In this document: positions 2,252-51,542 of the stretch, one piece after another
Position numbering within the stretch: the stretch's first letter is position 1
How the letters are laid out: each line of letters starts with the position of its first letter
IMG/VR virus record: IMGVR_UViG_3300035698_019437
Location: 1-64,000 of that record
Reading direction: 5' to 3' (one strand)
Source of the DNA: a virus
DNA: 64,000 nucleotides
Translations under genes and position numbers: made by a program
Notes under the pieces: generated by a model
Seen by the model: only the letters and a program-made list of their open reading frames with translations
What the model was told of the DNA's origin: nothing
The model's database searches: none

Positions 2252-2405
2252 ATGCAAAATGGAAAAATGATGTGTCGTGTTTGCAAAAAAACCTATTCAA
2301 AATAGATTTAAAGGTAAAAGAATTAGGTTCAAAAAAAAAGGCCAACCAGATGAAATTTTCCATATCTGTGGTCAATGCATGGAACAAAAATCCAGAAGAC
2401 AATGA
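2252..2405 (+). pseudogene. Frameshifted zinc-ribbon protein
   Basis: From the ATG at 2252 the frame encodes a start with CRVC and then meets TAG at about 2303. Shifting frame by one base in the A-run near 2299-2303 restores an open frame with Lys/Arg-rich sequence and a second pair, CGQC, ending at a TGA (2403-2405) that overlaps the next ATG by ATGA. The intact version would be a roughly 50-residue protein with two CxxC pairs. A sequencing error in the homopolymer is the main alternative to a real mutation. Confidence 0.55.
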
Positions 2406-2725
2406 ACCAAATATCGTATGATAAACTTGTTAATTGCACATTTCTAGAAAGAGATAGAATGATACATAAGCTTTTCGATTTCTATCTATATTCTGGTTAT
2501 ATTGTAAACGAGATTAAACTCTGTACAAAGGCTTGGCTGCTTTTAAAGCGTTTCATGAGCAATGGCCTAGACATTGAAACTAATAAAAAGATGTTAGACT
2601 TGGGTATACACGGTTATTTATATGGCTCTAATTTAATTATAGATGATAAAATAGATGGAATAAAAGTAGCTATATTTAGCAGGCAGTTTAATAGTTATTT
2701 CTTTTGGAAGAAGATGGAAACGTAA
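2402..2725 (+). CDS. W-tail family small protein (107 residues)
   Basis: The ATG at 2402 overlaps the stop of the broken zinc-ribbon gene by 4 nt, which fits translational coupling better than the in-frame ATG at 2375. The protein is helix-rich with Leu/Lys and ends FFWKKMET, placing Trp at -6 and Met at -3. That C-terminal signature is shared by 28 genes of the window. No other domain is recognised. Confidence 0.7.
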   Translation: MNQISYDKLVNCTFLERDRMIHKLFDFYLYSGYIVNEIKLCTKAWLLLKRFMSNGLDIETNKKMLDLGIHGYLYGSNLIIDDKIDGIKVAIFSRQFNSYFFWKKMET

Positions 2726-2726
2726 C

Positions 2727-3074
2727 ATGTTTAGTGGCGTTATGCAAACAATAAGAGTTGAAACAAAACTGCCTACGTTAAGAGACGTACACGGTATATT
2801 TCCTATTGTACATGAAGATTTTGGTAAAATACTGCATTTTATATATTACAATAAACCTCTCAAACGTAGTGGATGCAGAATTGTTATTGAAGCATTGAGA
2901 GAAAAGCCTATTACTTGGAGAGGATCACCCTCTAATATAAGATATGCAATGGACTTTTCAACGACTGCTTTATCAGATGTCTGGGTTGACCATTTTTGTA
3001 AACTATTCAGCAAATCTGACTACAGTTTTGTGTGTAGATTATCAAGGCTTGTTTGGATAGATATGGAGATTTGA
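2727..3074 (+). CDS. W-tail family small protein (115 residues)
   Basis: The ATG lies 1 nt after the previous stop; an alternative ATG is at 2742. The protein ends VWIDMEI (Trp at -6, Met at -3). The stop TGA shares its last base with the next ATG (TGATG), and the codons of the tail carry GGAG, a possible ribosome site for the next gene. The body shows no recognised domain. Confidence 0.7.
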   Translation: MFSGVMQTIRVETKLPTLRDVHGIFPIVHEDFGKILHFIYYNKPLKRSGCRIVIEALREKPITWRGSPSNIRYAMDFSTTALSDVWVDHFCKLFSKSDYSFVCRLSRLVWIDMEI

Positions 3075-3493
3075 TGAGTAATGGATGTTCTTTAAATATC
3101 GAAAACACTGATTGGCCTAAAAACATAATGGAGGTGGTCAGGATATTCAGAAACTCTACAACTACTCATGGTTTAGGAAGAATCATAGGATTTAACTTTG
3201 TTAAATTTACAGAAATAAGTTATCATCATGCCGAGCATGATTATTCTCTTATATTGTTCCCTATAAGAGAAGACACTCCAATATTTAGCGGTAAAGTTCC
3301 TAGTGTATTAGATAACTTTGCTTTCTATTTTAGGACTGCTAAACTTGCTATTCGATGGCTTAACAGAATCAACATCTTGTTGATATCAAAAGGATATAGT
3401 TTTAACGACCATACTGCTTACAATAACTTTTGGAGTAATCTGGCGAATCCTTGGGGAGAACTCCCGTTTATATGGAGGCCCATGAAAATATGA
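3074..3493 (+). CDS. W-tail family small protein (139 residues)
   Basis: The start at 3074 follows the coupled TGATG junction and has GGAG about 6 nt upstream. The protein ends IWRPMKI. Its tail codons TGGAGGCCC contain a strong GGAGG ribosome site for the next reading frame at 3490. The body is rich in aromatic residues; no domain is recognised. Confidence 0.72.
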   Translation: MSNGCSLNIENTDWPKNIMEVVRIFRNSTTTHGLGRIIGFNFVKFTEISYHHAEHDYSLILFPIREDTPIFSGKVPSVLDNFAFYFRTAKLAIRWLNRINILLISKGYSFNDHTAYNNFWSNLANPWGELPFIWRPMKI

Positions 3494-3729
3494 TTCCTAG
3501 AGTAGGACAATCAATTTAGTTTCTTGAAAAACCGCGTTTAATCCGTAAAGTAACGAAAATAGGAACCAGTAAATATTTGATTCGAATTGGAAATTGTCAA
3601 CAGCAGTATGAACTTGATTTTGTATATAACGACCAAGTATTTAAGCGGCTGTCAAGCGATTTATTTATACCTGTTGAATGTGATATAACCTGTAATTCAA
3701 TGTTTTTATGGCACAACATAACAATATGA
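3490..3729 (+). pseudogene. W-tail gene interrupted by an in-frame TAG
   Basis: The ATG at 3490 overlaps the preceding TGA. After nine codons beginning MIPRVGQSI, a TAG occurs at 3517-3519; beyond it the same frame stays open for 69 codons and ends LWHNITI, the family tail, with its TGA overlapping the ATG at 3726. The two following genes begin MIPEIGQ and MIPRTGQ and are clear paralogues. A nonsense mutation is the simplest reading, since TAG ends many other genes here; readthrough cannot be excluded. Confidence 0.7.
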
Positions 3730-3932
3730 TTCCTGAAATTGGACAAATAATACGACGGTCAGATGGTCAAATTGGCATAGCAACTAAAATTACTATTGTC
3801 AACAAAGTTTCTAAATACAAGGTAATATTAGAAGATACTAAAGGCAATGAACTTGATTGTACTGTTATCCCTATGTATTATACTAATAGTTTAACAGCAA
3901 CAATGTTCTTCTGGAAAACAATGAAATTATGA
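3726..3932 (+). CDS. W-tail family small protein, MIPxxGQ subgroup (68 residues)
   Basis: The start is set by the 4-nt ATGA overlap at 3726 and by the shared MIPEIGQII beginning with its neighbours. The protein looks beta-rich (short hydrophobic strands with IGIATKITI and YKVILED). It ends FWKTMKL. It is the middle member of a local triplication at 3490-4180. Confidence 0.75.
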   Translation: MIPEIGQIIRRSDGQIGIATKITIVNKVSKYKVILEDTKGNELDCTVIPMYYTNSLTATMFFWKTMKL

Positions 3933-4180
3933 TCCCAAGAACAGGACAACATATTGTCTATGGTGGTGGAGAATGCCTTATAATCGAAGTAAAGTCGCTA
4001 GGACGAAGTAAGTTGGTTAATAAATATGGTAGGAATTGCCAAGAAGACTTCGAAATTGCATTTATTTACAAAGGGATTACTTACCTAACAAAGGTAAACG
4101 ATTTGTTTTATCCAGTAGGGTACAAGATACCAGAAAATTGTCCAAGCTGGATGTTCCTTTGGAAACCTATGGAGATATAG
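3929..4180 (+). CDS. W-tail family small protein, MIPxxGQ subgroup (83 residues)
   Basis: It begins MIPRTGQHIVYGGG and ends LWKPMEI. The 4-nt overlap at 3929 sets the start. Compared with its two upstream paralogues it has a longer middle segment. It is the last of the run of six; the next gene starts 6 nt after its TAG stop, so the chain of direct overlaps ends here. Confidence 0.75.
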   Translation: MIPRTGQHIVYGGGECLIIEVKSLGRSKLVNKYGRNCQEDFEIAFIYKGITYLTKVNDLFYPVGYKIPENCPSWMFLWKPMEI

Positions 4181-4186
4181 AAAGCT

Positions 4187-4429
4187 ATGTTTGACAAAAA
4201 AACATTAGACAGACTATTAGATAACCGAGTATACATCAAGCCCGAAACATTCGTTCTGCGGCAGTTTGGACCTGATTATGGAGGAGATGCGACTAAGTTT
4301 CTTGGAGAGGACGATACGTGGACAGACAAAGAACATGCCATCACATTTGACAACGCAAGAGACATGAAATTTGTCGCTAGAAAATTTTGGAAAGAACAGG
4401 ATTTGTTGCTGATTCCAGTTATAATATAG
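4187..4429 (+). CDS. Hypothetical protein (80 residues)
   Basis: The protein is charged with mixed alpha/beta character and several Asp/Lys pairs (GGDATKFLGEDDTWTDKEH around residues 28-46). It ends IPVII and lacks the Trp tail of its neighbours. No ribosome site as strong as GGAGG is seen, although AAAGC precedes the ATG. Unknown function; it lies between the W-tail run and a tRNA. Confidence 0.6.
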   Translation: MFDKKTLDRLLDNRVYIKPETFVLRQFGPDYGGDATKFLGEDDTWTDKEHAITFDNARDMKFVARKFWKEQDLLLIPVII

Positions 4430-4443
4430 TGGAAGGTAAATCT

Positions 4444-4524
4444 GGGAACGTGGCAGACCGGAATGCATCCGACTCTTAATCGGTGGGCAATTGCCCTATG
4501 AGGGTTCGACTCCCTTCGTTCCTA
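4444..4524 (+). tRNA. Class II tRNA with Lys anticodon (CTT)
   Basis: Acceptor GGGAACG pairs with CGTTCCT. The D stem has three pairs, the anticodon stem TCCGA/TCGGT carries loop CTCTTAA with CTT at 34-36, and the variable arm is 15 nt with a perfect GGGC-AATT-GCCC hairpin. The T stem is GAGGG/CCCTT. Such a long arm is expected of Leu, Ser or Tyr tRNAs, not Lys. The amino acid charged is therefore uncertain. Confidence 0.8.
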
Positions 4525-4551
4525 TTGGTTCAACTTTTTTGACATTTTAAC

Positions 4552-4601
4552 AAGGATTTCGAACCCATAATGTCGAATAACTCTATGTAAGGAGTTATTC
4601 T
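4552..4601 (+). promoter_or_regulatory. Leader element B, shared by three endonuclease-type genes
   Basis: AAGGA (4552-4556) is followed by CGAA boxes at 4560-4563 and 4574-4577. A perfect 8-bp hairpin AATAACTC/GAGTTATT follows, with loop 4584-4591. The AAGGAG ribosome site (4589-4594) straddles the loop and 3' strand, so the hairpin could mask or expose the start at 4602. The same plan occurs at 1474 and 5831. Confidence 0.62.
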
Positions 4602-5123
4602 ATGGGTAATGTAAAATCTATTAAAAATTGTCAAAGAAGAAAAAAAGAACTAGCGGTGGAGAGATTTGGCGGCAAATGCTGCATATGTGGATATAAAAAA
4701 TGCGTAGGATCATTAGTATTCCATCATTTAGAAGATAAAAAAGAAAATCCATCTTATATCGTTGCAAGATGGAGTTGGGAAAGAGCAAAAAAAGAATTAG
4801 ATAAATGCATTCTGGTTTGTGCGAATTGTCATGGTGAAATCCACTATAACAACGAAATAGACACAAGATTGTTGAAATACTATAAACCGTTTTTGAAAAA
4901 GAAATGTATCGTATGTCATAAGAAATTTGAAACTAAGAAATACGAACAGAAGTTTTGTTCTCATGAATGTTCAGGATTTTCACAAAGAGTTGCAAAAAGA
5001 CCTTCGAAAAAAGACTTGAAATTTTTATTAGAACAAGAAACAAGTTGGGTCAAACTGGGTAGAATGTTTGGTGTATCTGATAATGCTGTAAGAAAATGGG
5101 CTAGGAAATACGGTTTATTATAA
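4602..5123 (+). CDS. HNH homing endonuclease
   Basis: Residues 25-90 form an HNH nuclease core with zinc-binding pairs (CCICG near 25 and CANC near 67), a VFHH motif (46-49) and NCHGEIH (69-75). A second C-pair region (CIVC and CSHEC, about 102-127) forms an additional ribbon. A C-terminal helix-turn-helix (WVKLGRMFGVSDNAVRKW) likely gives target binding. It is a paralogue of the gene at 5890 and follows a tRNA and leader B, as free-standing phage homing endonucleases often do. Confidence 0.9.
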   Translation: MGNVKSIKNCQRRKKELAVERFGGKCCICGYKKCVGSLVFHHLEDKKENPSYIVARWSWERAKKELDKCILVCANCHGEIHYNNEIDTRLLKYYKPFLKKKCIVCHKKFETKKYEQKFCSHECSGFSQRVAKRPSKKDLKFLLEQETSWVKLGRMFGVSDNAVRKWARKYGLL

Positions 5124-5135
5124 AAGAGTATTCGG

Positions 5136-5450
5136 ATGGCTATAATTTATATGGATGACAAAGAAATAACTTTACATAAATTGCCCTTTAATGAAGGCGA
5201 TGAATTTGTTTGCAACCATTGCAAAAAAGGCGATGCAACGATACGAAAATATGTTGGTAGTGCGTCTCAGCATGACTTTGTTTATTATCTAGGTGGACCT
5301 GTAAAATGGGGACGAACTGCCGAGGCCGAATTTAAAAACGGCATTTTCGATTTGATTGTTGCTTGTACAGGATGCGGACAAAAAATGGATAAACGAGAGT
5401 TTCTTCTTCTTCCTGAAGATACTTTTAAGTGGAGACAGATGTGCCTCTAG
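5136..5450 (+). CDS. Zinc-ribbon W-tail protein (104 residues)
   Basis: Two pairs, CNHC (near residue 26) and CTGC (near 78), form a likely zinc ribbon. The protein ends KWRQMCL. Its tail codons TGGAGACAG supply a GGAG ribosome site for the GTG start at 5441 of the next gene. The following gene has the same domain order, so the pair is a duplication. Function unknown. Confidence 0.78.
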   Translation: MAIIYMDDKEITLHKLPFNEGDEFVCNHCKKGDATIRKYVGSASQHDFVYYLGGPVKWGRTAEAEFKNGIFDLIVACTGCGQKMDKREFLLLPEDTFKWRQMCL

Positions 5451-5740
5451 TATGCCTTTATGATAATGCTTCAGTAGAATTTTACGATATAATTGATGGT
5501 CCTTATAAACCAAATTTAAGATTCACAATAGGTGATATTTTTAAGTGCAAACGATGTGGAACTTCTAGCGCAGAAGTATTCCCGTGTACCCACGAAACGG
5601 CTGAAGCCTATATAGTTTTTAATGAGCGTTTAATTGTTAATCCATCACATATTAGAATAATATGTGTATGCGGATATGAAATGACTAAATGGGGACTTTT
5701 TCCTGAAGAAACGTTTGAGTGGCAGTATATGTATATATAA
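5441..5740 (+). CDS. Zinc-ribbon W-tail protein (99 residues), GTG start
   Basis: The GTG at 5441 is preferred over the GTG at 5429 because GGAG (5431-5434) is at normal spacing to it. The protein has CKRC and CVCG-type cysteine motifs and ends EWQYMYI. It keeps the tail although no gene overlaps its TAA; a tRNA follows instead. It is a paralogue of the preceding gene. Confidence 0.72.
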   Translation: MPLVCLYDNASVEFYDIIDGPYKPNLRFTIGDIFKCKRCGTSSAEVFPCTHETAEAYIVFNERLIVNPSHIRIICVCGYEMTKWGLFPEETFEWQYMYI

Positions 5741-7309: not shown

Positions 7310-7394
7310 GCGGGCGTGACCAGAATTGGATATTGGAGCGGTCTTCTAAATCGCCGGGCTTGACCCATTGTAGGTTCGAATCCTACCGTCCGTG
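7310..7394 (+). tRNA. Class II tRNA with Arg anticodon (TCT)
   Basis: Acceptor GCGGGCG pairs with CGTCCGT. Anticodon stem GCGGT/ATCGC carries loop CTTCTAA, anticodon TCT for AGA. The variable arm is 15 nt with a GGG/CCC stem, which is a class II feature not expected for Arg. T stem GTAGG/CCTAC is perfect. Discriminator G is compatible with Ser or Arg. It may be a Ser-type body with an Arg anticodon. Confidence 0.8.
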
Positions 7395-7398
7395 TTAT

Positions 7399-7575
7399 AT
7401 GTCAACTCCTTATAAATGTCGAAGATGTTGGTGGAGAGAAGGCAATTGTTGTTTCAACGAAGAATTCGCATTTACTAGTTTTGATAAGAAAGGTCTACGT
7501 GAAGGTGAGTTAATAGAAGAAGCAACTGTTGAAGCATGTCGCAAAAATATTGCTTCAAAAAATATACCCGCATAG
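7399..7575 (+). CDS. Cys-rich small protein (58 residues)
   Basis: The ATG lies 4 nt after the tRNA 3' end with no space for a ribosome site. The N-terminus contains CRRCWWREGNCC, suggesting metal binding. The TAG stop (7573-7575) is supplied by bases 8-10 of the next tRNA gene. The frame continues upstream through the tRNA, but an earlier start would require translating it. Confidence 0.62.
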   Translation: MSTPYKCRRCWWREGNCCFNEEFAFTSFDKKGLREGELIEEATVEACRKNIASKNIPA

Positions 7576-7677
7576 CTCAACTGGATAGAGCAACGCTCTT
7601 CTTGTTCATCCTCCGTTAGAACGGAAACAGGGTTAACAAGAAAGCGTAGGTTAGAGGTTCGAATCCTCTTGTGGGTA
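7566..7677 (+). tRNA. tRNA-Arg(TCT) with a 38-nt intervening sequence
   Basis: Acceptor ACCCGCA/TGTGGGT, D stem GCTC/GAGC, anticodon stem ACGCT/AGCGT and T stem AGAGG/CCTCT are all perfect. Between the two strands of the anticodon stem are 45 nt instead of 7. Removing 7603-7640 leaves loop CTTCTAA with anticodon TCT and a normal 74-nt tRNA. The insert's 3' end AACAAG plus AA pairs with TTCTTGTT (7599-7606), covering the anticodon. An inner TCCG/CGGA hairpin caps it. Confidence 0.85.
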
Positions 7678-8405: not shown

Positions 8406-8788
8406 AGACCAAACGTTACTACCGTGTATTCGAAGTCAAGAAAGATGCCCCACATAGCATCTTTCATGGAACTCAAGGCTCTCGGATGTTGCCACTGAAT
8501 AAGTGGATAGAAGCTGATGTCAAAGACGTAACAGACGGAAGCGGTACGAGAGTTTACAAGTCTGGCTTCCATGTGATGAAAGACTTGCAGGCGACAACCG
8601 ACTTCTTCTTGAAGATGTTCAAGAAGTTCGAGAATCGAGTGATTGTTCCAGTAACGGTTGATGAGTCGGCAGGAATCTGGCGCAAAGAAAGAGCAAGAGG
8701 CGAAGTATTTTTGGCAAAGAAGATACGAATTGACAAGAGACAATGGAAAAAACGGATATACTTAGATAGTATAAATACACGCTCGTAG
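8402..8788 (+). CDS. Hypothetical basic protein (128 residues)
   Basis: The start is the 4-nt overlap ATG at 8402. The protein reads like a small phage protein with KTKRYYRVFEV at the start, a YKSGFHVMKD segment near residue 58 and WRKERARGEVFLAKKIRI near 92, mostly beta strands with basic residues. It lacks the W-tail. Its TAG stop (8786-8788) is formed by bases 8-10 of the next tRNA. Confidence 0.75.
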   Translation: MKTKRYYRVFEVKKDAPHSIFHGTQGSRMLPLNKWIEADVKDVTDGSGTRVYKSGFHVMKDLQATTDFFLKMFKKFENRVIVPVTVDESAGIWRKERARGEVFLAKKIRIDKRQWKKRIYLDSINTRS

Positions 8789-8850
8789 TGAAATGGATAT
8801 CACGGGACGCTTCGAACGTCTCATTCTGGGTTCGATTCCTAGCGGGCGTA
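8779..8850 (+). tRNA. tRNA-Arg(TCG)
   Basis: Acceptor ACGCTCG pairs with CGGGCGT. The anticodon stem GGACG/CGTCT has loop CTTCGAA with anticodon TCG. T arm CTGGG/CCTAG with loop TTCGATT is present; discriminator A. The upstream gene ends inside its first ten bases and the next ATG is only 3 nt beyond its 3' end. Confidence 0.88.
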
Positions 8851-14272: not shown

Positions 14273-14932
14273 ATGAAAAAATGTGGAGTTTATGTTATAA
14301 AAAACATAGTAAATGATAAATTGTATGTGGGAAGCAGTATAGACATTGATCATCGATATCGAGTACATATTTCAAACTTGAACAATAATAAACATGAGAA
14401 TTGCCATTTACAATATTCTTTTAATAAATATGGAAAAGCAAATTTTATCTTTTATATTATAGAACAATGTAAAGAACCGATTTTAAGAAAACGAGAACAA
14501 TATTATATAGATACATTAAATACCTTAGATAGAGTAATCGGCTATAACATTAGACCGGATACATATTGCAAAACATTTTCTGAAGAAACAAGAAAAAAAC
14601 TTAGCATTGCTGCAAAAAATAGACCTGCATCTTATTGGAAAAAGTTAAGCGATACAAGAAAAGGGTGGTCTCCTACAAAAGAACAAAGAAAAAGAATGTC
14701 TCTTTCACATAAAGGTAAACCACTATCGCAAAAACACAAGGACAGTATAAGTAGGGCATTATTAGGTAGAGTACCTTCTAAAGAGACTATAGAAAAACAG
14801 TCGAAAGCGAGAAAGGGACGTAAAGTTCCAGACTATATAAAACGAAAAATAAGTAATGCTTTAAGAGGAAGAAAACTAAGTGATGTAACTCGAAAAAAGA
14901 TGAGTGATTACTGGAAAATCTTTCTATGGTAG
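14273..14932 (+). CDS. GIY-YIG homing endonuclease, N-terminal part (frameshifted)
   Basis: Residues 5-22 hold the GIY-YIG core as GVYVI and KLYVGSS, followed by the conserved RYRVH Arg (near 28) and a later Glu in REQYY. C-terminal to it are repeated NUMOD3-type motifs (SEETRKKLS, SQKHKDSIS, SKETIEKQS, SDVTRKKMS) that bind DNA. The frame ends abruptly in WKIFLW while the same repeat type continues in the next frame, so the gene is broken by a frameshift near 14926. Confidence 0.88.
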   Translation: MKKCGVYVIKNIVNDKLYVGSSIDIDHRYRVHISNLNNNKHENCHLQYSFNKYGKANFIFYIIEQCKEPILRKREQYYIDTLNTLDRVIGYNIRPDTYCKTFSEETRKKLSIAAKNRPASYWKKLSDTRKGWSPTKEQRKRMSLSHKGKPLSQKHKDSISRALLGRVPSKETIEKQSKARKGRKVPDYIKRKISNALRGRKLSDVTRKKMSDYWKIFLW

Positions 14933-27082: not shown

Positions 27083-29677
27083 ATGGCTGACCTGATAGTA
27101 AAACCTAATATGTGGTACCCTGGCATCCGCTCGGGCCATCCGCTTGCGCGTGGACTGGTGGCTTACCTCCCAATGTGGGAAGGGACCGGAAGTGGCGTTC
27201 AAGACGTTTCGGCTACCCAAAATAGCGGTAGTATAACCGGCGCATCTTGGTCCGGGTCTAAGTTTGGCAGTTCTCTTGGATTCAGTACCGCCGGGGCCAG
27301 TCAGTTCGCGAGCATTCCAGACCATTCATCGCAGACGGGGATGTCAGAACTTACTATAGAGTCGTGGGTATACTACACGAGCGGCGAAATATATGGTCGC
27401 ATCTTTGACAAGGTGCCTGGCTCGGCCTACGCGGGCTACATTCGGGATGTCACACATTCCATCGGGTTTGCCATTGCCACAGACTTAGGAACGTTGGACG
27501 TGTCAACATTTCGGCAAACAATTTCAGACAACACTTGGACTCATATAATATGGACGTGGAGTTCTGCGGAAGGTGCTTGCAATATCTATATGGATGGGGC
27601 CGTAGGCACCCCAGAAGCAAGGACCGGGAATGTAGTATCCGACGACGCCCAAGCGATACTCCTCGGTGATAATGCAATCGGTGCGCGCGGCTTTGGTGGC
27701 AAGATTGGCAGCTTTGGGGTGTGGAACCGCCGCCTCTCTGCGGGCGAAATAGTTGAACGATGTCAAGACCCTTGGGGCCTCATCACCCCGCCAAGTACTA
27801 AGACTCATGTTATTTTCTCATCAGGCGATATTCCATCCACTAACGATGTCTATATTACTGCTGGCTTGCCGGTTTATAAAGATACTGACCAGGTTCCAAC
27901 TGGCAATAGTGTATTCATTACCGCAGGTCTTCCTCCTGCCGTAGAAATTACTCCATACAACTATGGATATGTTGATATTGGGCCGTTACAACATGGTGGA
28001 AGTGCTGCTAATGAAGGTGCCGCTGATATAGGGCCATTACAAACTGAATATGATGAAGCGGCTTCAAGTTCTAGCCATAGCAGTTCTAGCCATTCATCAA
28101 GTAGTAGTCATAGCAGTTCAAGTCATTCAAGTTCTAGCCATTCTTCAAGTAGCCATTCATCTAGTTCTAGCCATTCAAGTTCTAGCCATTCGAGTTCAAG
28201 CCATTCATCGAGTAGTAGTCATAGTAGCAGTAGTAGCCACTCTAGTTCTAGTCATAGTAGTTTAAGCAGTAGCCATAGCAGTTCAAGCCATTCTAGCAGT
28301 AGTAGTCATTCTAGTAGCAGTAGTCATTCTAGCAGTAGTCATAGCAGCAGTAGCCATTCATCAAGCAGTAGCCATTCATCAAGCAGTAGCCATTCATCAA
28401 GCAGTAGTCATTCTAGCAGTAGTCATTCAAGTTCAAGTCATTCTTCAAGCAGTAGTCACAGCAGTAGCAGCCATTCTAGTTCTAGCCATAGTTCAAGTAG
28501 TAGCCACAGCAGTAGTAGTCATTCAAGTTCAAGTCATTCATCGAGTAGTAGTCATAGCAGTAGCAGCCATTCATCTAGTTCTAGCCATTCATCTAGTTCT
28601 AGTCATAGTAGCAGTAGTCATTCTAGTAGTAGCCATTCATCAAGTAGTAGTCATTCAAGTAGCAGTCACAGTAGTAGTAGCCATTCATCAAGTAGTCACA
28701 GTAGCAGTAGTCATTCTTCTAGTTCCAGTCATAGCAGTTCTAGTCATTCAAGTTCTAGCCATTCAAGTTCTAGCCATTCATCTAGCAGTAGTCATAGCAG
28801 TTCTAGTCATTCAAGTTCTAGTCATTCAAGTTCTAGCCATTCTTCTAGCAGTAGCCATTCAAGTTCTAGCCATTCTTCAAGCAGTAGCCATTCATCGAGT
28901 AGTAGTCATAGTAGCAGTAGTAGCCACTCTAGTTCTAGTCATAGTAGTTTAAGCAGTAGCCATAGCAGTTCAAGCCATTCTTCTAGCAGTAGTCATTCAT
29001 CAAGCAGTCACAGTAGTAGTAGCCATTCTTCTAGTTCTAGTCATAGTAGCAGTAGTCATTCTTCTAGTAGCCATAGTTCAAGTTCAAGCCATTCATCAAG
29101 TAGTAGTCATTCAAGTTCTAGTCATAGTAGCAGTAGTCATTCTTCTAGTTCCAGTCATAGCAGTTCTAGTCATTCTTCTAGTTCTAGCCATAGCAGTTCT
29201 AGTCATTCAAGTTCTAGCCATAGCAGTTCTAGTCATTCAAGTTCAAGTCATTCATCTAGCAGTAGCCATTCAAGTTCTAGCCATTCAAGTTCTAGCCATT
29301 CTAGTTCAAGTCATTCATCTAGTTCTAGCCATTCATCTAGTTCTAGTCATAGTAGTAGCAGCCATTCTTCTAGTAGCCATAGTTCTAGTTCAAGCCATTC
29401 ATCAAGTAGTAGTCATTCTAGTTCAAGCCATTCAAGTTCAAGTCATTCTTCAAGCAGTAGTCATTCATCAAGCAGTCACAGTAGTACTACTTCTAGTAGT
29501 CACAGTAGTTCAAGCCATTCAAGTTCAAGTCATTCTTCAAGCAGTAAACATATTAGACCTGTAAAACAAAATATTAAAACATCATATGAACAATTAACAC
29601 CAAGTAAACAAATTAGTGTTAACTCTAAAAGATTACAGAATCCTAAAGGAATAAAAACAGGATATCAGAATCTATAA
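27083..29677 (+). CDS. LamG-domain protein with long Ser/His repeat (864 residues)
   Basis: Residues about 60-245 are a LamG/concanavalin-like domain (ELTIESWVYYTSG, TWTHIIWTWSSAEG, ACNIYMDGAVG, GKIGSFGVWNRRLSAGEI) that usually binds sugars. After two short strand repeats (VYITAGLPVY and VFITAGLPP), residues 328-821 are only Ser and His except two Leu and a TT pair. A basic 43-residue tail (KHIRPVKQNIKTSYEQL) ends it. The first third is GC-rich, the rest is not. It is likely a virion fibre with a carbohydrate-binding head and a long flexible stalk. Confidence 0.88.
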   Translation: MADLIVKPNMWYPGIRSGHPLARGLVAYLPMWEGTGSGVQDVSATQNSGSITGASWSGSKFGSSLGFSTAGASQFASIPDHSSQTGMSELTIESWVYYTSGEIYGRIFDKVPGSAYAGYIRDVTHSIGFAIATDLGTLDVSTFRQTISDNTWTHIIWTWSSAEGACNIYMDGAVGTPEARTGNVVSDDAQAILLGDNAIGARGFGGKIGSFGVWNRRLSAGEIVERCQDPWGLITPPSTKTHVIFSSGDIPSTNDVYITAGLPVYKDTDQVPTGNSVFITAGLPPAVEITPYNYGYVDIGPLQHGGSAANEGAADIGPLQTEYDEAASSSSHSSSSHSSSSSHSSSSHSSSSHSSSSHSSSSSHSSSSHSSSSHSSSSSHSSSSSHSSSSHSSLSSSHSSSSHSSSSSHSSSSSHSSSSHSSSSHSSSSSHSSSSSHSSSSSHSSSSHSSSSHSSSSSHSSSSHSSSSHSSSSSHSSSSHSSSSHSSSSSHSSSSHSSSSSHSSSSSHSSSSHSSSSHSSSSSHSSSSHSSSSHSSSSHSSSSHSSSSSHSSSSHSSSSHSSSSHSSSSSHSSSSHSSSSHSSSSHSSSSSHSSSSHSSSSSHSSSSSHSSSSSHSSSSHSSLSSSHSSSSHSSSSSHSSSSHSSSSHSSSSSHSSSSHSSSSHSSSSSHSSSSSHSSSSHSSSSHSSSSSHSSSSHSSSSSHSSSSHSSSSHSSSSHSSSSHSSSSSHSSSSHSSSSHSSSSHSSSSSHSSSSSHSSSSHSSSSHSSSSSHSSSSSHSSSSHSSSSHSSSSSHSSSSHSSTTSSSHSSSSHSSSSHSSSSKHIRPVKQNIKTSYEQLTPSKQISVNSKRLQNPKGIKTGYQNL
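28064..29545 (+). repeat. Ser/His low-complexity repeat (494 codons)
   Basis: The repeat units are S4H or S5H in irregular order, about ninety units. Serine codons alternate between AGT, AGC, TCT, TCA and TCG, so the protein pattern is kept although the DNA is not a simple tandem repeat. One 94-nt block is identical at 28201-28294 and 28888-28981. Two Leu occur, both inside that duplicated block. Confidence 0.95.
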
Positions 29678-31044: not shown

Positions 31045-32013
31045 ATGAACAAGCATTATGAAGCAATCCATCGTTACGATTTTCTAACCAAAGAATTGCT
31101 AGAGAAAGAGTATGTACAGGATGGATTAACGGATAAGCAAATAGCTGAAAAACATGATATGCCTTCTAAAACAGTGGTATGGCGAAAACGCAAAAAATAT
31201 GGGATTCCAAACAAGTGTCCCGGCAAGTCTAACAAAAACGCGACAAAGAATAGGCGATTTCATATCAGCTTAGAAAGAGCTAAGGAACTCAAATCCAAAG
31301 GCTATACCATAAAACAAATAGCAGCTACTATTGGTTGCGGTGAGTTAGTAGCCAAAAGAAGACTAGAAGAACTTGGTTTAACCAATAAACACAAATCAAC
31401 CGAAAAGTATTCTTGTTGGGATGTAGAACTATCTGATATCCAGAAAGATTCTATCCTTGGTATGGTATTGGGAGATGGATATTTAACTAATAGTAACGCT
31501 ATATCTTTTTCTCATTCTATTAAACAGTCAGAGTATATCAAACACAAACATAGTCTTTTGCATAATCTTAGGCCGGGGAGCATAACCCTAAATCCGGTCA
31601 AGTTAAAATATAAAGATGATATAAAAATACATGATACGTTGCATTTTACAACATGCACAAACAAACATCTCGCTTATCTAAAAAGTATCTTTTATAACGA
31701 GGCTGGTAAAAAGATATTTCCTTACTATTACCTTATGGAACATCTAGGAAATATCGGTTTGGCATATTGGTTTATGGATGACGGGAATTTACATTACAAA
31801 AGTGCTAGATTATTTACATGCAACTTTACCCTACTAGAACATTTTATGATACAGAAGTTGTTCAAAGAAAAGTTTGGATTGTGTTGCAAAATACTGTATC
31901 ACAACCAAAAAAGGAATTACTATGTTGCTTTCTCTGTTGAAGAAACTAAAAAGTTGTTTTCTCTAATCCGTCCTCACATCATCGAAAGCATGAAATATAA
32001 AGTAGAAATGTAG
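31045..32013 (+). CDS. LAGLIDADG homing endonuclease with N-terminal helix-turn-helix
   Basis: Two LAGLIDADG-type motifs are visible: GMVLGDGYL (residues 139-147) and LAYWFMDDGNL (about 239-249), each with the catalytic Asp. Two helix-turn-helix segments lie before them (LTDKQIAEKHDMPSKTVVW and YTIKQIAATIGCGELVAK). It is free-standing between two structural-type genes. A CCGATAAT box and a hairpin around ATGCC/GGCAT overlap the start, which lacks a strong ribosome site. Confidence 0.88.
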   Translation: MNKHYEAIHRYDFLTKELLEKEYVQDGLTDKQIAEKHDMPSKTVVWRKRKKYGIPNKCPGKSNKNATKNRRFHISLERAKELKSKGYTIKQIAATIGCGELVAKRRLEELGLTNKHKSTEKYSCWDVELSDIQKDSILGMVLGDGYLTNSNAISFSHSIKQSEYIKHKHSLLHNLRPGSITLNPVKLKYKDDIKIHDTLHFTTCTNKHLAYLKSIFYNEAGKKIFPYYYLMEHLGNIGLAYWFMDDGNLHYKSARLFTCNFTLLEHFMIQKLFKEKFGLCCKILYHNQKRNYYVAFSVEETKKLFSLIRPHIIESMKYKVEM

Positions 32014-33387: not shown

Positions 33388-33415
33388 TTGATATTTGGTA
33401 TTTCTGCGTTATAAT
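33388..33415 (+). promoter_or_regulatory. Sigma70-type promoter
   Basis: TTGATA (33388-33393) and TATAAT (33410-33415) are separated by 16 nt. The ATG at 33422 follows the -10 box by 6 nt, so transcription would start at or next to the start codon, giving a leaderless or nearly leaderless message. It would drive the eleven-gene array. Confidence 0.6.
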
Positions 33416-33421
33416 GTGACT

Positions 33422-33769
33422 ATGAGTGGCGATAGAAATGTATTTGAATTTCCTTCTGAGGAGATAATATACTTCAGCTTCATTTTTGATGATGTGAAAT
33501 ATAGCTGTCATGCTTGTTATTGCAACTATGCATCTAGGTATGCCATTTATACCAAGTCTTTAATTAAGGGTATACATGTTCGTGTATCAGATGTCGAGTG
33601 GGTTCCCGCATATAATGGTTGCAAAGACAGATATTTTAGATGCGTCGATACTCATGGATATGTTTTTCCTGCATTTACGAGTTTAGACGACTTTTTTGCT
33701 ACTATCACAAGAACGATGAGGAAGCTTCTTGGGCTTCATCTTTTTAGTTGGAAAGAGATGACACTATGA
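33422..33769 (+). CDS. W-tail family protein, first of an eleven-gene chain (115 residues)
   Basis: The ATG at 33422 is preferred to the upstream TTG at 33395 because the promoter -10 box overlaps that region. Contains FPSEEIIYFSFIFDDVKYSC (FxF...C pattern) with additional cysteines (CHACYC) and ends SWKEMTL. The tail codons contain GGAAAGAG as a ribosome site for the coupled ATG at 33766. Confidence 0.75.
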   Translation: MSGDRNVFEFPSEEIIYFSFIFDDVKYSCHACYCNYASRYAIYTKSLIKGIHVRVSDVEWVPAYNGCKDRYFRCVDTHGYVFPAFTSLDDFFATITRTMRKLLGLHLFSWKEMTL

Positions 33770-34080
33770 ATAAAGACATATTACCTCCGCGTACATTCCA
33801 TGTGATTTGTAGAAATACTACATATAGATTCTTTTTTTATACTATAGAAAATAAAATGATGTACGGGATTCATACGACAAATCTTCCTATAGACCCTATA
33901 ATGGAAGCAGAGCTTTACATCCATAAAGATTTTAAGAAGAATTTTGATGTTCACATGAACGTACATAGAGCTTACTGTAATTTAGGACCAAGGTTTTTTG
34001 CAGACTTATTTGAAAGGGCGTATAAAACTATCAAATTCATTATGTCGAATAGTTTTCGTTGGGAAGAAATTACAATATGA
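33766..34080 (+). CDS. W-tail family protein, array member (104 residues)
   Basis: Start by ATGA overlap. PPRTFHVICRNTTYRFFF shows the shared strand pattern with Phe in place of Cys. A helical C-terminal half (FFADLFERAYKTIKF) precedes the RWEEITI ending. Same architecture as all members: two or three strands, then a helix, then the tail. Confidence 0.75.
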   Translation: MNKDILPPRTFHVICRNTTYRFFFYTIENKMMYGIHTTNLPIDPIMEAELYIHKDFKKNFDVHMNVHRAYCNLGPRFFADLFERAYKTIKFIMSNSFRWEEITI

Positions 34081-34397
34081 CTCATAGACATGAAATGGAA
34101 ATAAGATTACCGGAGCCTATAGAGATTTTTGGATTTGGGTTAGACGGTAATAATTTCATGGCAATATTGGAGAAGACTACAGAAGAATATTGGTTATATC
34201 GTGTTCATCTTGGTAATAAACATGTTTTTTCTTTTATGTTCCGTCTTTACTATTTAAAATTTGCTTTCTTCCATAACGAGGTACATAAATGTGCTGCAAT
34301 GCATTTAGATTATAGGAAGATTGCAGGAGCGGCTGACAAAAGCTTTGACAAATTTATTCTTTCCCAGATTTTTGTTTGGCAAGAGATACAGATATGA
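34077..34397 (+). CDS. W-tail family protein, array member (106 residues)
   Basis: The ATG at 34077 overlaps the previous stop. LPEPIEIFGFGLDGNNF is a divergent version of the PxxFxF pattern. A helix ends the body (YRKIAGAADKSFDKFI), followed by VWQEIQI. Tail codons TGGCAAGAGA weaken the ribosome site compared with neighbours. Confidence 0.74.
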   Translation: MTHRHEMEIRLPEPIEIFGFGLDGNNFMAILEKTTEEYWLYRVHLGNKHVFSFMFRLYYLKFAFFHNEVHKCAAMHLDYRKIAGAADKSFDKFILSQIFVWQEIQI

Positions 34398-34681
34398 TAC
34401 CAGAACTTCCGGAACAATTTGAATTGTTTTTTGAAGAAAAGTTTTTTAGCTTCACCATGAAGCGTCAATGGACGAAGAACATACAGTTCCCTGTGATTTA
34501 TTTTATAAATAGCATTCCTTTTAACAGTAGCAAAAGCTATGTATCATCTTTACATCTCGATGTCCTTCACGGAGATTTATGTTTTAGTATTGCGAATAAC
34601 AGTAACATGGGTGAAGAGGCATGCATCTTGTTAGAAAAAATGAATGGTTTATGGTTTAAGTGGAGTTGGATGACGCGATGA
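34394..34681 (+). CDS. W-tail family protein, array member (95 residues)
   Basis: Start by ATGA overlap. LPEQFELFFEEKFFSFTMK gives the FxF pattern. The C-terminal helix is SNMGEEACILLEKMNG and the ending KWSWMTR, one of two tails with a second Trp. Otherwise unremarkable in the family. Confidence 0.74.
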   Translation: MIPELPEQFELFFEEKFFSFTMKRQWTKNIQFPVIYFINSIPFNSSKSYVSSLHLDVLHGDLCFSIANNSNMGEEACILLEKMNGLWFKWSWMTR

Positions 34682-35076
34682 CAAGGGCACTTGAACAAAC
34701 AAGAGCTTCTTTAAGATATGCCTATCATATAAAAGGACATTACCCTAAAGAATTCAGATTCTACGCGAATGGACTACCTTTTAGATGTGTTGCTAATCGC
34801 CGTCTAACGAGCGGAATGTATTATGCTTTGTATTATGAATTGTATTATGCTGGACCTTTTGCTGATGGTAAAATAGTTGACACGTTGATTGTAGATGTTT
34901 GTGATAGTATGACTTTTGATTGTGGGAGTAATCAGTATATACCTCATGCTTCTGATAGGTTTAAAGGAAATCAATTTAACATAGAAAAATGGTTTGTTAT
35001 ACAAGAAGCTCACGCCGTATTCGTTGATATTATGACTGATCCTTTTCATCTTTGTTGGGTGGATATAATAGTATGA
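34678..35076 (+). CDS. W-tail family protein, longest array member (132 residues)
   Basis: Start by overlap at 34678. After an extra N-terminal helix of about 18 residues it has YPKEFRFYANGLPFRCV, the clearest PxxFxF...C motif, and ends CWVDIIV. A Tyr-rich segment (YYALYYELYYAG) lies in the middle. Confidence 0.75.
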   Translation: MTRALEQTRASLRYAYHIKGHYPKEFRFYANGLPFRCVANRRLTSGMYYALYYELYYAGPFADGKIVDTLIVDVCDSMTFDCGSNQYIPHASDRFKGNQFNIEKWFVIQEAHAVFVDIMTDPFHLCWVDIIV

Positions 35077-35408
35077 TACCTATGAACCCAAATCTTCTTC
35101 CTCTTGAGGTAAATTTTTGTATTGAAGGAATTGAATTCAGGTGTTGTTTAACAAAAACAAAAACGGATACTGGTTTTTCTTATAGTTATAGAGTAATAGA
35201 AGACTTACATTTTCTTCCCGGTAAAGTATATTCCGTTCATTGTTTTTCTATAGAATATGGAGTTGATGAATCAAAAAGAGTCTACTTGCGAGCTGTCATA
35301 GACGGCAGAACGCCGTGTGATAAAGATTTTGTTATTAAACCCACCTGTAAATTACATGACATTCTTGCTGATGAGGGGTATTTTCATTGGAAACAGATAA
35401 TGATATGA
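35073..35408 (+). CDS. W-tail family protein, array member (111 residues)
   Basis: Start by overlap. LPLEVNFCIEGIEFRCCL carries the strand motif with paired Cys, then a Ser/Tyr strand region. Ends HWKQIMI. Its tail codons give GGAAACAGAT before the next ATG. Confidence 0.75.
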   Translation: MIPMNPNLLPLEVNFCIEGIEFRCCLTKTKTDTGFSYSYRVIEDLHFLPGKVYSVHCFSIEYGVDESKRVYLRAVIDGRTPCDKDFVIKPTCKLHDILADEGYFHWKQIMI

Positions 35409-35683
35409 AAGACTTTACTCCTCCTAGATTATTATCTTTTCATTTTGGATTTACGCACTATACTTGTCAAGTAGACTCCAAGAAAAAGACATGTACTGTT
35501 TATAAGACTTTTGGTATGGTTCCTGTTTTTATGGCTGAATTCTTTATAGATAATGAATATCTAGTTACAATGCGAGCGACACGCCGCTATGAGGAATATT
35601 GCTATACTTTAACAAAAAAGGTTGAAAGAGAATTTCGAGATTATATGATTAACAAGTTTATGTGGAAGAACATGAAAACATGA
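35405..35683 (+). CDS. W-tail family protein, array member (92 residues)
   Basis: Start by overlap. PPRLLSFHFGFTHYTCQV shows the FxF...C pattern. A charged helix (TLTKKVEREFRDYMI) precedes the MWKNMKT end. One of the shorter members, near the minimal architecture. Confidence 0.75.
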   Translation: MKDFTPPRLLSFHFGFTHYTCQVDSKKKTCTVYKTFGMVPVFMAEFFIDNEYLVTMRATRRYEEYCYTLTKKVEREFRDYMINKFMWKNMKT

Positions 35684-35967
35684 TAGATGAAGATTACAGA
35701 CTTCCGAGTTTTTTTGGAGTTAGAATCTCTGATCGTCTATTTGTCTGTACTATCCGTAAACTCAGAAATAGTTACAGGTATGTGGTTCATACTTCAATTG
35801 ATGGTGAGACTTTGAAGATTGGTTCTTTTTCGGTAGTTTTACGAAAAAATGGCAAGTATGGTATTATTAACTTTGAGAAAGAATATGTAGAACTTGTTAG
35901 CGTTATGACTAAAGAACTAAATCATGTTGTTAGCAACAGATTCTATTGGATAGAGATGGAAATATGA
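35680..35967 (+). CDS. W-tail family protein, array member (95 residues)
   Basis: Start by overlap. LPSFFGVRISDRLFVCTIRK is a typical strand pair with C. The helix VELVSVMTKELNHVV precedes YWIEMEI. Its neighbour at 35964 is very similar in design, as expected for tandem duplication and divergence. Confidence 0.76.
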   Translation: MIDEDYRLPSFFGVRISDRLFVCTIRKLRNSYRYVVHTSIDGETLKIGSFSVVLRKNGKYGIINFEKEYVELVSVMTKELNHVVSNRFYWIEMEI

Positions 35968-36233
35968 ATTTATGTAGTAATACTTTACCTGTATTTTTTA
36001 AATTCGAGGTCGAGGATGAAGTGTGGACATGTTCAATTGCACAGGAACGTGGTCCTTATTATGTTGTAAGTTGTGGCTCATCAAGCGCAGGAGCTAATTT
36101 GTCTTTTTCCGATTCAGGGGATTACATTATATCATTATATACGGGAACAGATAGATGGGATAAAGTGTTTAAGAAAGCTTCTGATATATTGAACGAGTTA
36201 TGTTATTTTTGTTGGCAAGAAATGGAAATATGA
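35964..36233 (+). CDS. W-tail family protein, array member (89 residues)
   Basis: Start by overlap. LPVFFKFEVEDEVWTCSIAQ carries the motif, followed by YYVVSCGSSS and an SGDYIISLYTG strand. Helix KVFKKASDILNELCYF precedes CWQEMEI. Similar in plan to the member at 36508, which may be its closest paralogue (SSAGxYxxS and ASEVLNDLCYK). Confidence 0.76.
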   Translation: MNLCSNTLPVFFKFEVEDEVWTCSIAQERGPYYVVSCGSSSAGANLSFSDSGDYIISLYTGTDRWDKVFKKASDILNELCYFCWQEMEI

Positions 36234-36511
36234 ACGCAGATTTTCCAGATACATTTTGTTTTACCTACAGGATGGAGAGGATTGAAGCTATAAATAAGAG
36301 GGGAACTGGGCCGTTCTTATATGATTTAACCGGACTTTGTGGAAGAAGTATAGCAACCCTTGAAGTACGAAAATCTCATCTTGAAGGCGTAGTCGCGTTT
36401 AATATTTTAGACAAACTCGATTATCATGCTTTTGAAATTGGAAGAATAGCGTGTTGTTTATTGGAAAACATGTTAGGATTTTGGTTCGGATGGAAATGGA
36501 TGACTTTATGA
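36230..36511 (+). CDS. W-tail family protein, array member (93 residues)
   Basis: Start by overlap. FPDTFCFTYRMERIEAI keeps FxF but lacks the following Cys. Ends GWKWMTL, again with a second Trp. A helix (EIGRIACCLLENMLG) matches the one in the member at 34394 (EEACILLEKMNG), so these two form a subtype. Confidence 0.75.
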   Translation: MNADFPDTFCFTYRMERIEAINKRGTGPFLYDLTGLCGRSIATLEVRKSHLEGVVAFNILDKLDYHAFEIGRIACCLLENMLGFWFGWKWMTL

Positions 36512-50426: not shown

Positions 50427-51542
50427 ATGTCTAATTCAGCTATACGAGGTGTTGACCTTGGAACGATGTTTTTTCAAGTTGCAGAGTCGGCAGAAGATAA
50501 ACAGATAAACATCAAAACAACTAGAAATGCATTTGTAGAGTTGGCAGAGTCTGAAGATATTGAAGACGTTCTTAGTCAAAACAAATGGCAATATGTGAAA
50601 GATGGTAAGAAATATTATGTTATAGGCGAAGACTCTTTAAGAGTAGCTAAGATGTTCCCTGGAAAAGTCGAACTTAGGAGACCTCTTAGAGATGGTGTTT
50701 TGAACAAAGGCGAAGAAAAGAAGATGCTTATTCTAGCAGAACTTATTGAGTCATCAATTGGTATCGCACCAGATGATAACTCTTTAGTCTGCTTTTGTGT
50801 TTCATCTCAATCCGTTGATGGTTCTGCCGACAGTACGTTCCACAAGGCTAGACTTTCAGGTATGTTTAAAAGACTTAAGTGGAATACAAAAGTCATTGAA
50901 GAAGGAATGGCAATAATTTTATCTGAGAGACCAACTGTTATAGAACCAGATGGTGAAGAATCTCCATACAGCGGCATAGGTATATCTTTTGGCGCAGGTA
51001 GAGTAAACTGTGTTTTAGCCTACAAGGGTTTACAAGTTATAGGGATGTCTTGTGCTAGAAGTGGAGACTGGATTGATAAGAAGGTTTCTGAACAGACGGA
51101 TACGCCTATTTCTCAAGTAACGTCTAAGAAAGAAAAATCTTTAGATTTTAATAACATAGATTATGATGATGACGTTTTGTTTGCGTTAGATGCATACTAT
51201 GGTTCTATGATAGAGTTTGTTTTCGGTCATTTTTCCAAGAAATTCTCTGAAGTTAAAAGCCAATTTGATGCTCCTCTTGATATTGTTGTTGCTGGAGGCA
51301 CCTCAATGCCTAAAGGATTTTGCGACAAAATTGAGGAAGTAATAAGAGGACTAGACTTGCCGTTTGAGGTAAAGTCAATTAGAAGAGCATCGGACCCAGT
51401 GAATACCGTAGTTAAGGGTTGTTTGACTCAAGCTATGGTTTCACAGAAGAAATTGGCTAAAGACAAAATAGAAACCAAAGAAGAAAAACCGGTTTCTCTT
51501 GAGAAAAAGGCAGATGATTTGTCTGACATTCTTGGAGAATAA
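50427..51542 (+). CDS. Actin/Hsp70-fold ATPase (ParM/MreB-like)
   Basis: The three nucleotide-binding motifs of the superfamily are visible: GVDLGTMFFQVAE (residues 8-20, phosphate 1), GISFGAGRVN (about 183-192, phosphate 2), and IVVAGGTSMPKGF (about 289-301, adenosine). The length is close to ParM. AGGAG precedes the ATG. In phages such proteins form filaments or segregate DNA; being placed between coiled-coil and head-tail genes is unusual. Role here unknown. Confidence 0.8.
   Translation: MSNSAIRGVDLGTMFFQVAESAEDKQINIKTTRNAFVELAESEDIEDVLSQNKWQYVKDGKKYYVIGEDSLRVAKMFPGKVELRRPLRDGVLNKGEEKKMLILAELIESSIGIAPDDNSLVCFCVSSQSVDGSADSTFHKARLSGMFKRLKWNTKVIEEGMAIILSERPTVIEPDGEESPYSGIGISFGAGRVNCVLAYKGLQVIGMSCARSGDWIDKKVSEQTDTPISQVTSKKEKSLDFNNIDYDDDVLFALDAYYGSMIEFVFGHFSKKFSEVKSQFDAPLDIVVAGGTSMPKGFCDKIEEVIRGLDLPFEVKSIRRASDPVNTVVKGCLTQAMVSQKKLAKDKIETKEEKPVSLEKKADDLSDILGE

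What the first reader, a model, noticed from the sequence alone, without database searches (positions are those of the whole stretch)
7566..7677. tRNA-Arg(UCU) with a precise 38-nt insertion at the anticodon, like a tiny tRNA intron
Outside the insert every stem of this tRNA is perfect. Removing 7603-7640 restores loop CTTCTAA, identical to the loop of the other UCU tRNA at 7310, so the insertion is between positions 36 and 37. In the precursor the loop and insert pair (TTCTTGTT with AACAAGAA) and hide the anticodon. Bacterial and phage tRNA introns known to me are group I introns of 200 nt or more; short introns near position 37 are an archaeal or eukaryotic trait. If spliced, this would be a new type; if not, the tRNA is inactive or has an extended anticodon stem.
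Basis: partly seen in the sequence, partly recalled or inferred. Interest (0 to 1): 0.9.

Follow-up and report, generated by a model that had tools for sequence, protein, structure and literature searches.

The report
Hairpin intron in a phage tRNA
A phage arginine tRNA gene is interrupted at its anticodon by a 38-base hairpin, and at least ten other distinct viral tRNAs, some in cultured Aeromonas phages, carry differently spelled hairpins folded the same way at the same spot, so this is probably a real tiny intron whose removal nobody has yet explained.

Summary
A tRNA-Arg(UCU) at 7566-7677 has intact stems and a 38-nt insert (7603-7640) exactly between positions 36 and 37. The insert pairs with the anticodon loop. 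It is not a one-off. Scans of viral contigs gave seven other distinct tRNA-Arg(UCU) genes, two tRNA-Thr(UGU) and one tRNA-Ile(UAU) with 24-28 nt inserts at the same point. Their sequences differ, but all continue the anticodon stem, past a one-base bulge at position 32, into a helix across both junctions. Pairing and covariation far exceed controls.

Members include cultured Aeromonas phages PX29, AsFcp_1, AsFcp_2, Ah1 and avDM12-TAAL; phiAS5 has the intact gene at the same locus. PX29 and Ah1 have diverged with four base pairs of the interrupted tRNA body compensated and none broken, which implies the interrupted gene is functional and hence probably spliced.

The two junctions are offset as an RNase III cut would be (2-nt 3' overhangs). 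Proposed mechanism: host RNase III excises the hairpin and an RNA ligase rejoins the halves. Excision is supported indirectly; the enzymes are inference, and no RNA ligase was found in this phage. Enigmatic tRNA introns are already reported in Lak megaphages, so this is a new variant of a known kind.

The parts
7566..7602 (+). 5' exon of tRNA-Arg(UCU), positions 1-36; anticodon TCT at 7600-7602, C32 at 7598
   Evidence: Rfam RF00005 55.0 bits; 74-nt spliced cloverleaf; spliced form matches annotated phage tRNA-Arg(TCT) at 82.9%
7603..7640 (+). 38-nt insert between tRNA positions 36 and 37 (hairpin intron)
   Evidence: exact boundary from loop CTTCT|AA; register same as PX29 versus intronless phiAS5; single copy in the contig
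7641..7677 (+). 3' exon, positions 37-73 (A37 A38 at 7641-7642, discriminator A73 at 7677, no encoded CCA)
7599..7606 (+). 5' arm of the 8-bp helix: U33 U34 C35 U36 plus the first four insert bases
   Evidence: fold; covariation
7635..7642 (+). 3' arm of the 8-bp helix: last six insert bases plus A37 A38
   Evidence: fold; covariation
7608..7633 (+). apical hairpin of the insert
   Evidence: minimum free energy and centroid structures agree
7593..7597 (+). anticodon stem 27-31, paired with 7643-7647
7310..7394 (+). second UCU tRNA, class II body (long variable arm, G73); context, not part of the intron
8779..8850 (+). intact tRNA-Arg(UCG); context, argues against reading the interrupted gene as UCG

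Best explanation
The insert is a small hairpin intron in a working tRNA-Arg(UCU) gene. In the transcript the anticodon loop pairs with the end of the insert, so the anticodon stem continues (past a bulged C32) as a helix of about 20 bp. A double-strand-specific ribonuclease, most likely host RNase III, cuts both strands with a 2-nt stagger: after U36 and before A37. That releases the hairpin and leaves a nicked tRNA with 3'-OH and 5'-phosphate ends in a normal 7-nt anticodon loop. An RNA ligase (T4 Rnl1-type where the phage encodes one, otherwise unknown) seals it and restores tRNA-Arg(UCU). Shown: position, conserved architecture, covariation, empty alleles, maintenance of the interrupted tRNA body. 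Inferred: that excision happens, RNase III as the cutter, the ligase.
For: (1) Same architecture in 11 distinct viral tRNAs: helix through both junctions, with bulged position 32 in the eight Arg members folded. On 11 sequences 92.1% of cells pair (shuffled 65.5%), 12 of 15 pairs change on both sides, covariation score 0.733 against 0.201 (0 of 500 shuffles), and sliding the partner by 1-3 columns destroys it. (2) In the scan that did not require the complement, the three UCU tRNAs with a 36/37 insert all end the insert in AG, completing UUCU:AGAA. (3) phiAS5 has the syntenic gene without insert (loop CTTCTAA), fixing boundary and identity; MT835482 is an empty relative of L135. (4) PX29 and Ah1 tRNA bodies: 4 pairs compensated on both sides, 1 changed on one side, 0 broken. 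(5) In the sampled tRNA regions of the PX29, L156, L185 and L201 phages ARAGORN finds no other tRNA-Arg. AGA is 57% of Arg codons in this phage. (6) Boundary pairing 35:-1, 36:-2, 34:37 gives a 2-nt 3' overhang, the RNase III cut geometry (end chemistry from established knowledge). (7) T4 Rnl1 rejoins tRNA broken in the anticodon loop (PMC3014915). PF09511 (Rnl1) is in the PX29, L201 and L210 contigs.
Against: No RNA data. No PF09511, PF09414 or RtcB match in this contig, although it is linear and may be incomplete. Several helices have a mismatch at the second insert base, close to the proposed cut, and helices of 17-20 bp are near the short end for RNase III (established knowledge). Most further members were found with patterns that required UUNN:NNAA, so those four pairs are partly imposed by the search.
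Confidence: 0.5

Rival explanations
1. A hairpin intron removed by a different enzyme: a phage- or host-encoded endonuclease not recognised here, leaving cyclic phosphate/5'-OH ends healed by Pnkp plus ligase or by host RtcB.
For: The class is defined by structure rather than sequence, which fits any structure-specific nuclease. No known ligase was found in this phage. The same phages carry other inserts (CAGCAA type) that need some removal route.
Against: The recurrent register matches RNase III geometry without needing a new enzyme.
Confidence: 0.25
2. Never spliced: an extended-arm tRNA-like RNA with another role, such as an anticodon hidden from anticodon nucleases, or a decoy.
For: The helix completely sequesters the anticodon. 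Anticodon-loop nucleases are common anti-phage weapons (PMC3014915, PMC7824862).
Against: U33, the anticodon and A37 A38 are kept as in decoding tRNAs. Phages with near-complete tRNA sets carry this gene as their only detected tRNA-Arg. phiAS5 keeps a normal tRNA-Arg(UCU) at the same place.
Confidence: 0.15
3. A dead tRNA: a chance hairpin insertion inactivated the gene.
For: One copy, no RNA data. The phage has another tRNA with a UCU anticodon at 7310-7394.
Against: At least eleven distinct cases at the same position with the same fold. Compensated, unbroken divergence of the PX29 and Ah1 bodies.
Confidence: 0.07
4. Archaeal-type bulge-helix-bulge intron cut by EndA, the virus infecting an archaeon.
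For: The only hit in 84,980 prokaryote genomes for the strict pattern is an archaeon.
Against: No pair of 3-nt bulges in any member folded. Position 36/37. No tRNA_int_endo match in ten member contigs. Known hosts of members are Aeromonas. This phage has bacterial-type DNA polymerase III, DnaB and primase genes.
Confidence: 0.03

Closest known systems
tRNA introns of Lak megaphages (Devoto et al. 2019, PMC6784885)
   Same: Inserts in phage tRNAs, present or absent between relatives, mechanism unknown
   Different: The passages read here give no common hairpin architecture or anticodon-insert helix. At least one Lak intron is itself tRNA-like, which resembles our L055 and L110 type rather than this one.
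Split tRNA annotated in Aeromonas phage PX29 (GU396103, 101162-101261)
   Same: Same class: tRNA-Arg(UCU) with a 26-nt hairpin at 36/37
   Different: Annotated as a two-piece tRNA-Lys; the T4-relatives genome paper read here does not discuss it
Archaeal BHB tRNA introns
   Same: Short; interrupt the anticodon loop; removed by protein enzymes
   Different: Need two bulges and EndA; usual site 37/38
Eukaryotic nuclear tRNA introns
   Same: Short; an intron base pairs with the anticodon loop
   Different: Site 37/38; cut by the TSEN/SEN complex; splice sites in bulges rather than continuous helix
Group I introns in bacterial and phage tRNAs
   Same: Interrupt the anticodon loop
   Different: Self-splicing, about 200 nt or more; no Rfam intron match here
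T4 Pnkp/Rnl1 tRNA repair
   Same: Would seal exactly this kind of nick
   Different: Repairs nuclease damage; not known to splice introns

Membership tests
Archaeal BHB tRNA intron | two 3-nt bulges separated by a 4-bp helix at the splice sites | tested here: not met
   continuous helix across both junctions, one 1-nt bulge at position 32
Archaeal BHB tRNA intron | EndA-type endonuclease in the host or virus | tested here: inconclusive
   no PF01974 match in ten member contigs, all four archaeal controls positive; host of this phage unknown
Group I intron | conserved catalytic core, about 200 nt or more | tested here: not met
   38 nt; no Rfam intron match
Eukaryotic nuclear tRNA intron | insertion between 37 and 38 | tested here: not met
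   between 36 and 37, fixed by the phiAS5 empty allele of the same class
Hairpin tRNA inserts of phages (class described here) | insert at 36/37 whose 3' end pairs with U33-U36 and continues the anticodon stem | tested here: met
Lak-type phage tRNA introns | insert in a phage tRNA, absent from relatives | tested here: met
   met for the class (phiAS5, MT835482); for the window's own gene the nearest intact genes seen are only about 83% identical tRNA-Arg
RNase III substrate | duplex of about 20 bp cut with a 2-nt 3' stagger | tested here: inconclusive
   geometry fits; cleavage cannot be tested computationally
RNA-ligase-dependent splicing | RNA ligase available | tested here: inconclusive
   Rnl1 in 3 of 11 member contigs, none in this one

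The most novel reading that the evidence does not exclude
Bacteria and phages have a protein-based tRNA splicing pathway: hairpin introns at 36/37 are cut by the housekeeping enzyme RNase III and the halves are sealed by an RNA ligase, a third solution beside group I self-splicing and EndA/TSEN splicing.
Probability: 0.4. Interest if true: 0.9.

Novelty: new variant of a known kind. Interest (0 to 1): 0.74.

Why it matters
Bacterial tRNA introns are thought to be self-splicing. A recurrent class of 24-38 nt hairpin introns in phage tRNAs needs an enzyme route nobody has described, and it would give phage RNA ligases a role in making tRNAs, not only in repairing them. Because cultured Aeromonas phages carry it, with an intronless sister phage, the question raised by the enigmatic Lak introns can be tested directly. 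Standard tRNA finders miss or misname these genes, so phage tRNA counts are too low.

Tried and rejected
Insert as a repeated mobile element: single copy in the contig, other local matches at chance level. Exact insert in viral contigs: none. Relatives through a neighbouring 412-aa gene: none; through the DNA polymerase: one 46-kb contig without tRNAs. Reading the gene as tRNA-Arg(UCG) with the insert at 35/36: rejected, because the empty allele reads CTTCTAA and the phage has a separate UCG tRNA. ARAGORN intron mode: splits misplaced, for example it calls this gene tRNA-Leu(aag). Belonging to the CAGCAA insert type: only the four letters ACAG are shared, taken as chance. RtcB, EndA and RNase III genes in the phages: none found. 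RNA-ligase enrichment: suggestive only.

Full report
What is there. The window is the first 64 kb of a 147,268-base IMG/VR virus contig. All of its tRNA genes lie in the first 11 kb, among small genes. At 7566-7677 Rfam finds a tRNA (55.0 bits) that ARAGORN misses. The exons make a perfect 74-nt cloverleaf with loop CTTCTAA, tRNA-Arg(UCU). The 38-nt insert lies between 36 and 37. It folds with the anticodon loop into one long hairpin: 5-bp anticodon stem, bulged C32, 8 bp (UUCUUGUU with AACAAGAA), then an apical hairpin.

Is it a lone oddity? No near relative of the phage region is in the phage collection at DNA level. So viral contigs were scanned for tRNA-shaped patterns. A scan for tRNA-Arg or tRNA-Lys loops followed by extra sequence, without any demand on the insert, gave three UCU tRNAs with a 36/37 insert (L073, L135, L156). 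All three inserts end in AG so that AGAA pairs with U33-U36. A second scan that required this complement gave 43 stretches. Seven of them (L210 and L196 hold the same insert) and the window form all 21 cloverleaf pairs; every other stretch scores 14 or less, as expected for chance. Further scans for other U34 anticodons added tRNA-Ile(UAU) L305 and tRNA-Thr(UGU) L288 and L289 with 27-28 nt inserts in the same register; L288 has one unpaired acceptor position. The strict UCU pattern over 84,980 prokaryote genomes gave a single match, an archaeal tRNA. Within the limits of these patterns the class is viral.

Structure statistics. For eight Arg members, 38 of 48 insert-insert pairs beyond the imposed ones form in a fixed register. 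Shuffled inserts average 19.4 and never reached 38 in 20,000 trials. With anticodon stems included, 11 members have 92.1% of cells paired, 12 of 15 pairs with changes on both sides and a covariation score of 0.733 against 0.201 shuffled (0 of 500); slid controls fall to 36-55%. All eight Arg members fold to the same plan, each with z below -4. Caveat: four anticodon-loop pairs were partly imposed by the search patterns, except in the window, L073, L135, L156 and the Ah1 homologue, which was found by similarity.

Natural experiments. L073 is Aeromonas phage PX29. AsFcp_1 and AsFcp_2 carry the identical gene, and Ah1 and avDM12-TAAL a 28-nt version. phiAS5 has the same gene at the same place, between the homologue of the PX29 gp57B gene and two tRNA-Leu, without any insert. 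Across PX29 and Ah1 the tRNA body differs at 13 places: four pairs are compensated on both sides and none is broken. If the insert predates their split, as the shared position and alignable sequence suggest, the interrupted gene was under selection as a tRNA. In the sampled tRNA regions of PX29 and of three other member contigs ARAGORN finds no other tRNA-Arg. In the window's phage AGA makes up 57% of arginine codons. The simplest reading is that the insert is removed.

How it could be removed. Pairing puts the 5' boundary (36|insert) and the 3' boundary (insert|37) in one helix, offset by two base pairs with 3' overhangs. That is the cut pattern of RNase III, which leaves 5'-phosphate and 3'-OH (established knowledge). 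The nick would lie in an otherwise normal anticodon loop, the kind of end that T4 RNA ligase 1 seals during tRNA repair (PMC3014915). Rnl1-family genes are present in the PX29, L201 and L210 contigs. None is found in this contig, and the enrichment is weak (3 of 11 against 5 of 68, p about 0.08). No EndA, RtcB or RNase III gene was found in the phages that were searched; RNase III would have to be the host's. These steps are inference.

Known or new. Lak megaphages were reported to have tRNA introns with no known mechanism, one of them tRNA-like (PMC6784885). PX29's record annotates its gene as a two-piece tRNA-Lys. In the papers searched here I found no description of a class with a fixed site and an anticodon-sequestering helix, nor of a removal mechanism; the library is partial and holds no bioRxiv preprints. 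I call it a new variant of a known kind.

Noticed in passing
L016, L028, L041, L067, L081 (two), L084 (two), L087, L089, L105; L263 and L266: A second insert type, about 40-50 nt, mostly in the 5' side of the anticodon arm of viral tRNAs: a stem-loop followed by CAGCRA and often TTC. The motif occurs in 14 of 68 distinct insert-bearing tRNAs against 2.2 expected by shuffling (a few of the 14 look like chance). It also occurs in PX29 and the L156 phage. Looks like a separate mini-intron class.
   Followed up: partly
L055/L148, L110, L116, L010/L024: Anticodon loops (Lys UUU, His GUG and others) interrupted by a nested mini-tRNA with an acceptor-like stem and T arm, some ending in CCA; RNase P and 3'-end processing could in principle excise them. 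Resembles the tRNA-like intron reported in Lak phages.
   Followed up: partly
4444-4524 and 7310-7394: tRNAs with Lys(CUU) and Arg(UCU) anticodons on class II bodies (long variable arms; A73 and G73), as in Leu or Ser tRNAs. Possible recoding or suppressor tRNAs.
   Followed up: no
L281 1501-1600 (Aeromonas phage PX29); L282, L283, L284: GenBank annotates the PX29 gene as a split tRNA-Lys; it should read tRNA-Arg(UCU). The same gene is unannotated in Ah1 and avDM12-TAAL, and the intact one is unannotated in phiAS5.
   Followed up: yes
33395-36511, also about 2375-5740: Runs of small overlapping genes, each about 100 aa, with different sequences but mostly a shared C-terminal F-x-W-x-x-(M/I) ending (for example LFSWKEMTL, RFYWIEMEI), many consecutive ORFs overlapping by 22 bases.
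   Followed up: no
27083-29677: 864-aa protein with a long repeat of (S)HSSSS units.
   Followed up: no
50427-51542: Actin-like protein (Pfam Volactin, E 1.2e-60) just before the head-tail genes.
   Followed up: no
14273-14932, 31045-32013, L004:395-1327: GIY-YIG and LAGLIDADG homing endonuclease genes; HNH-like small ORFs at 4602 and 5890 (by eye, no Pfam match).
   Followed up: partly
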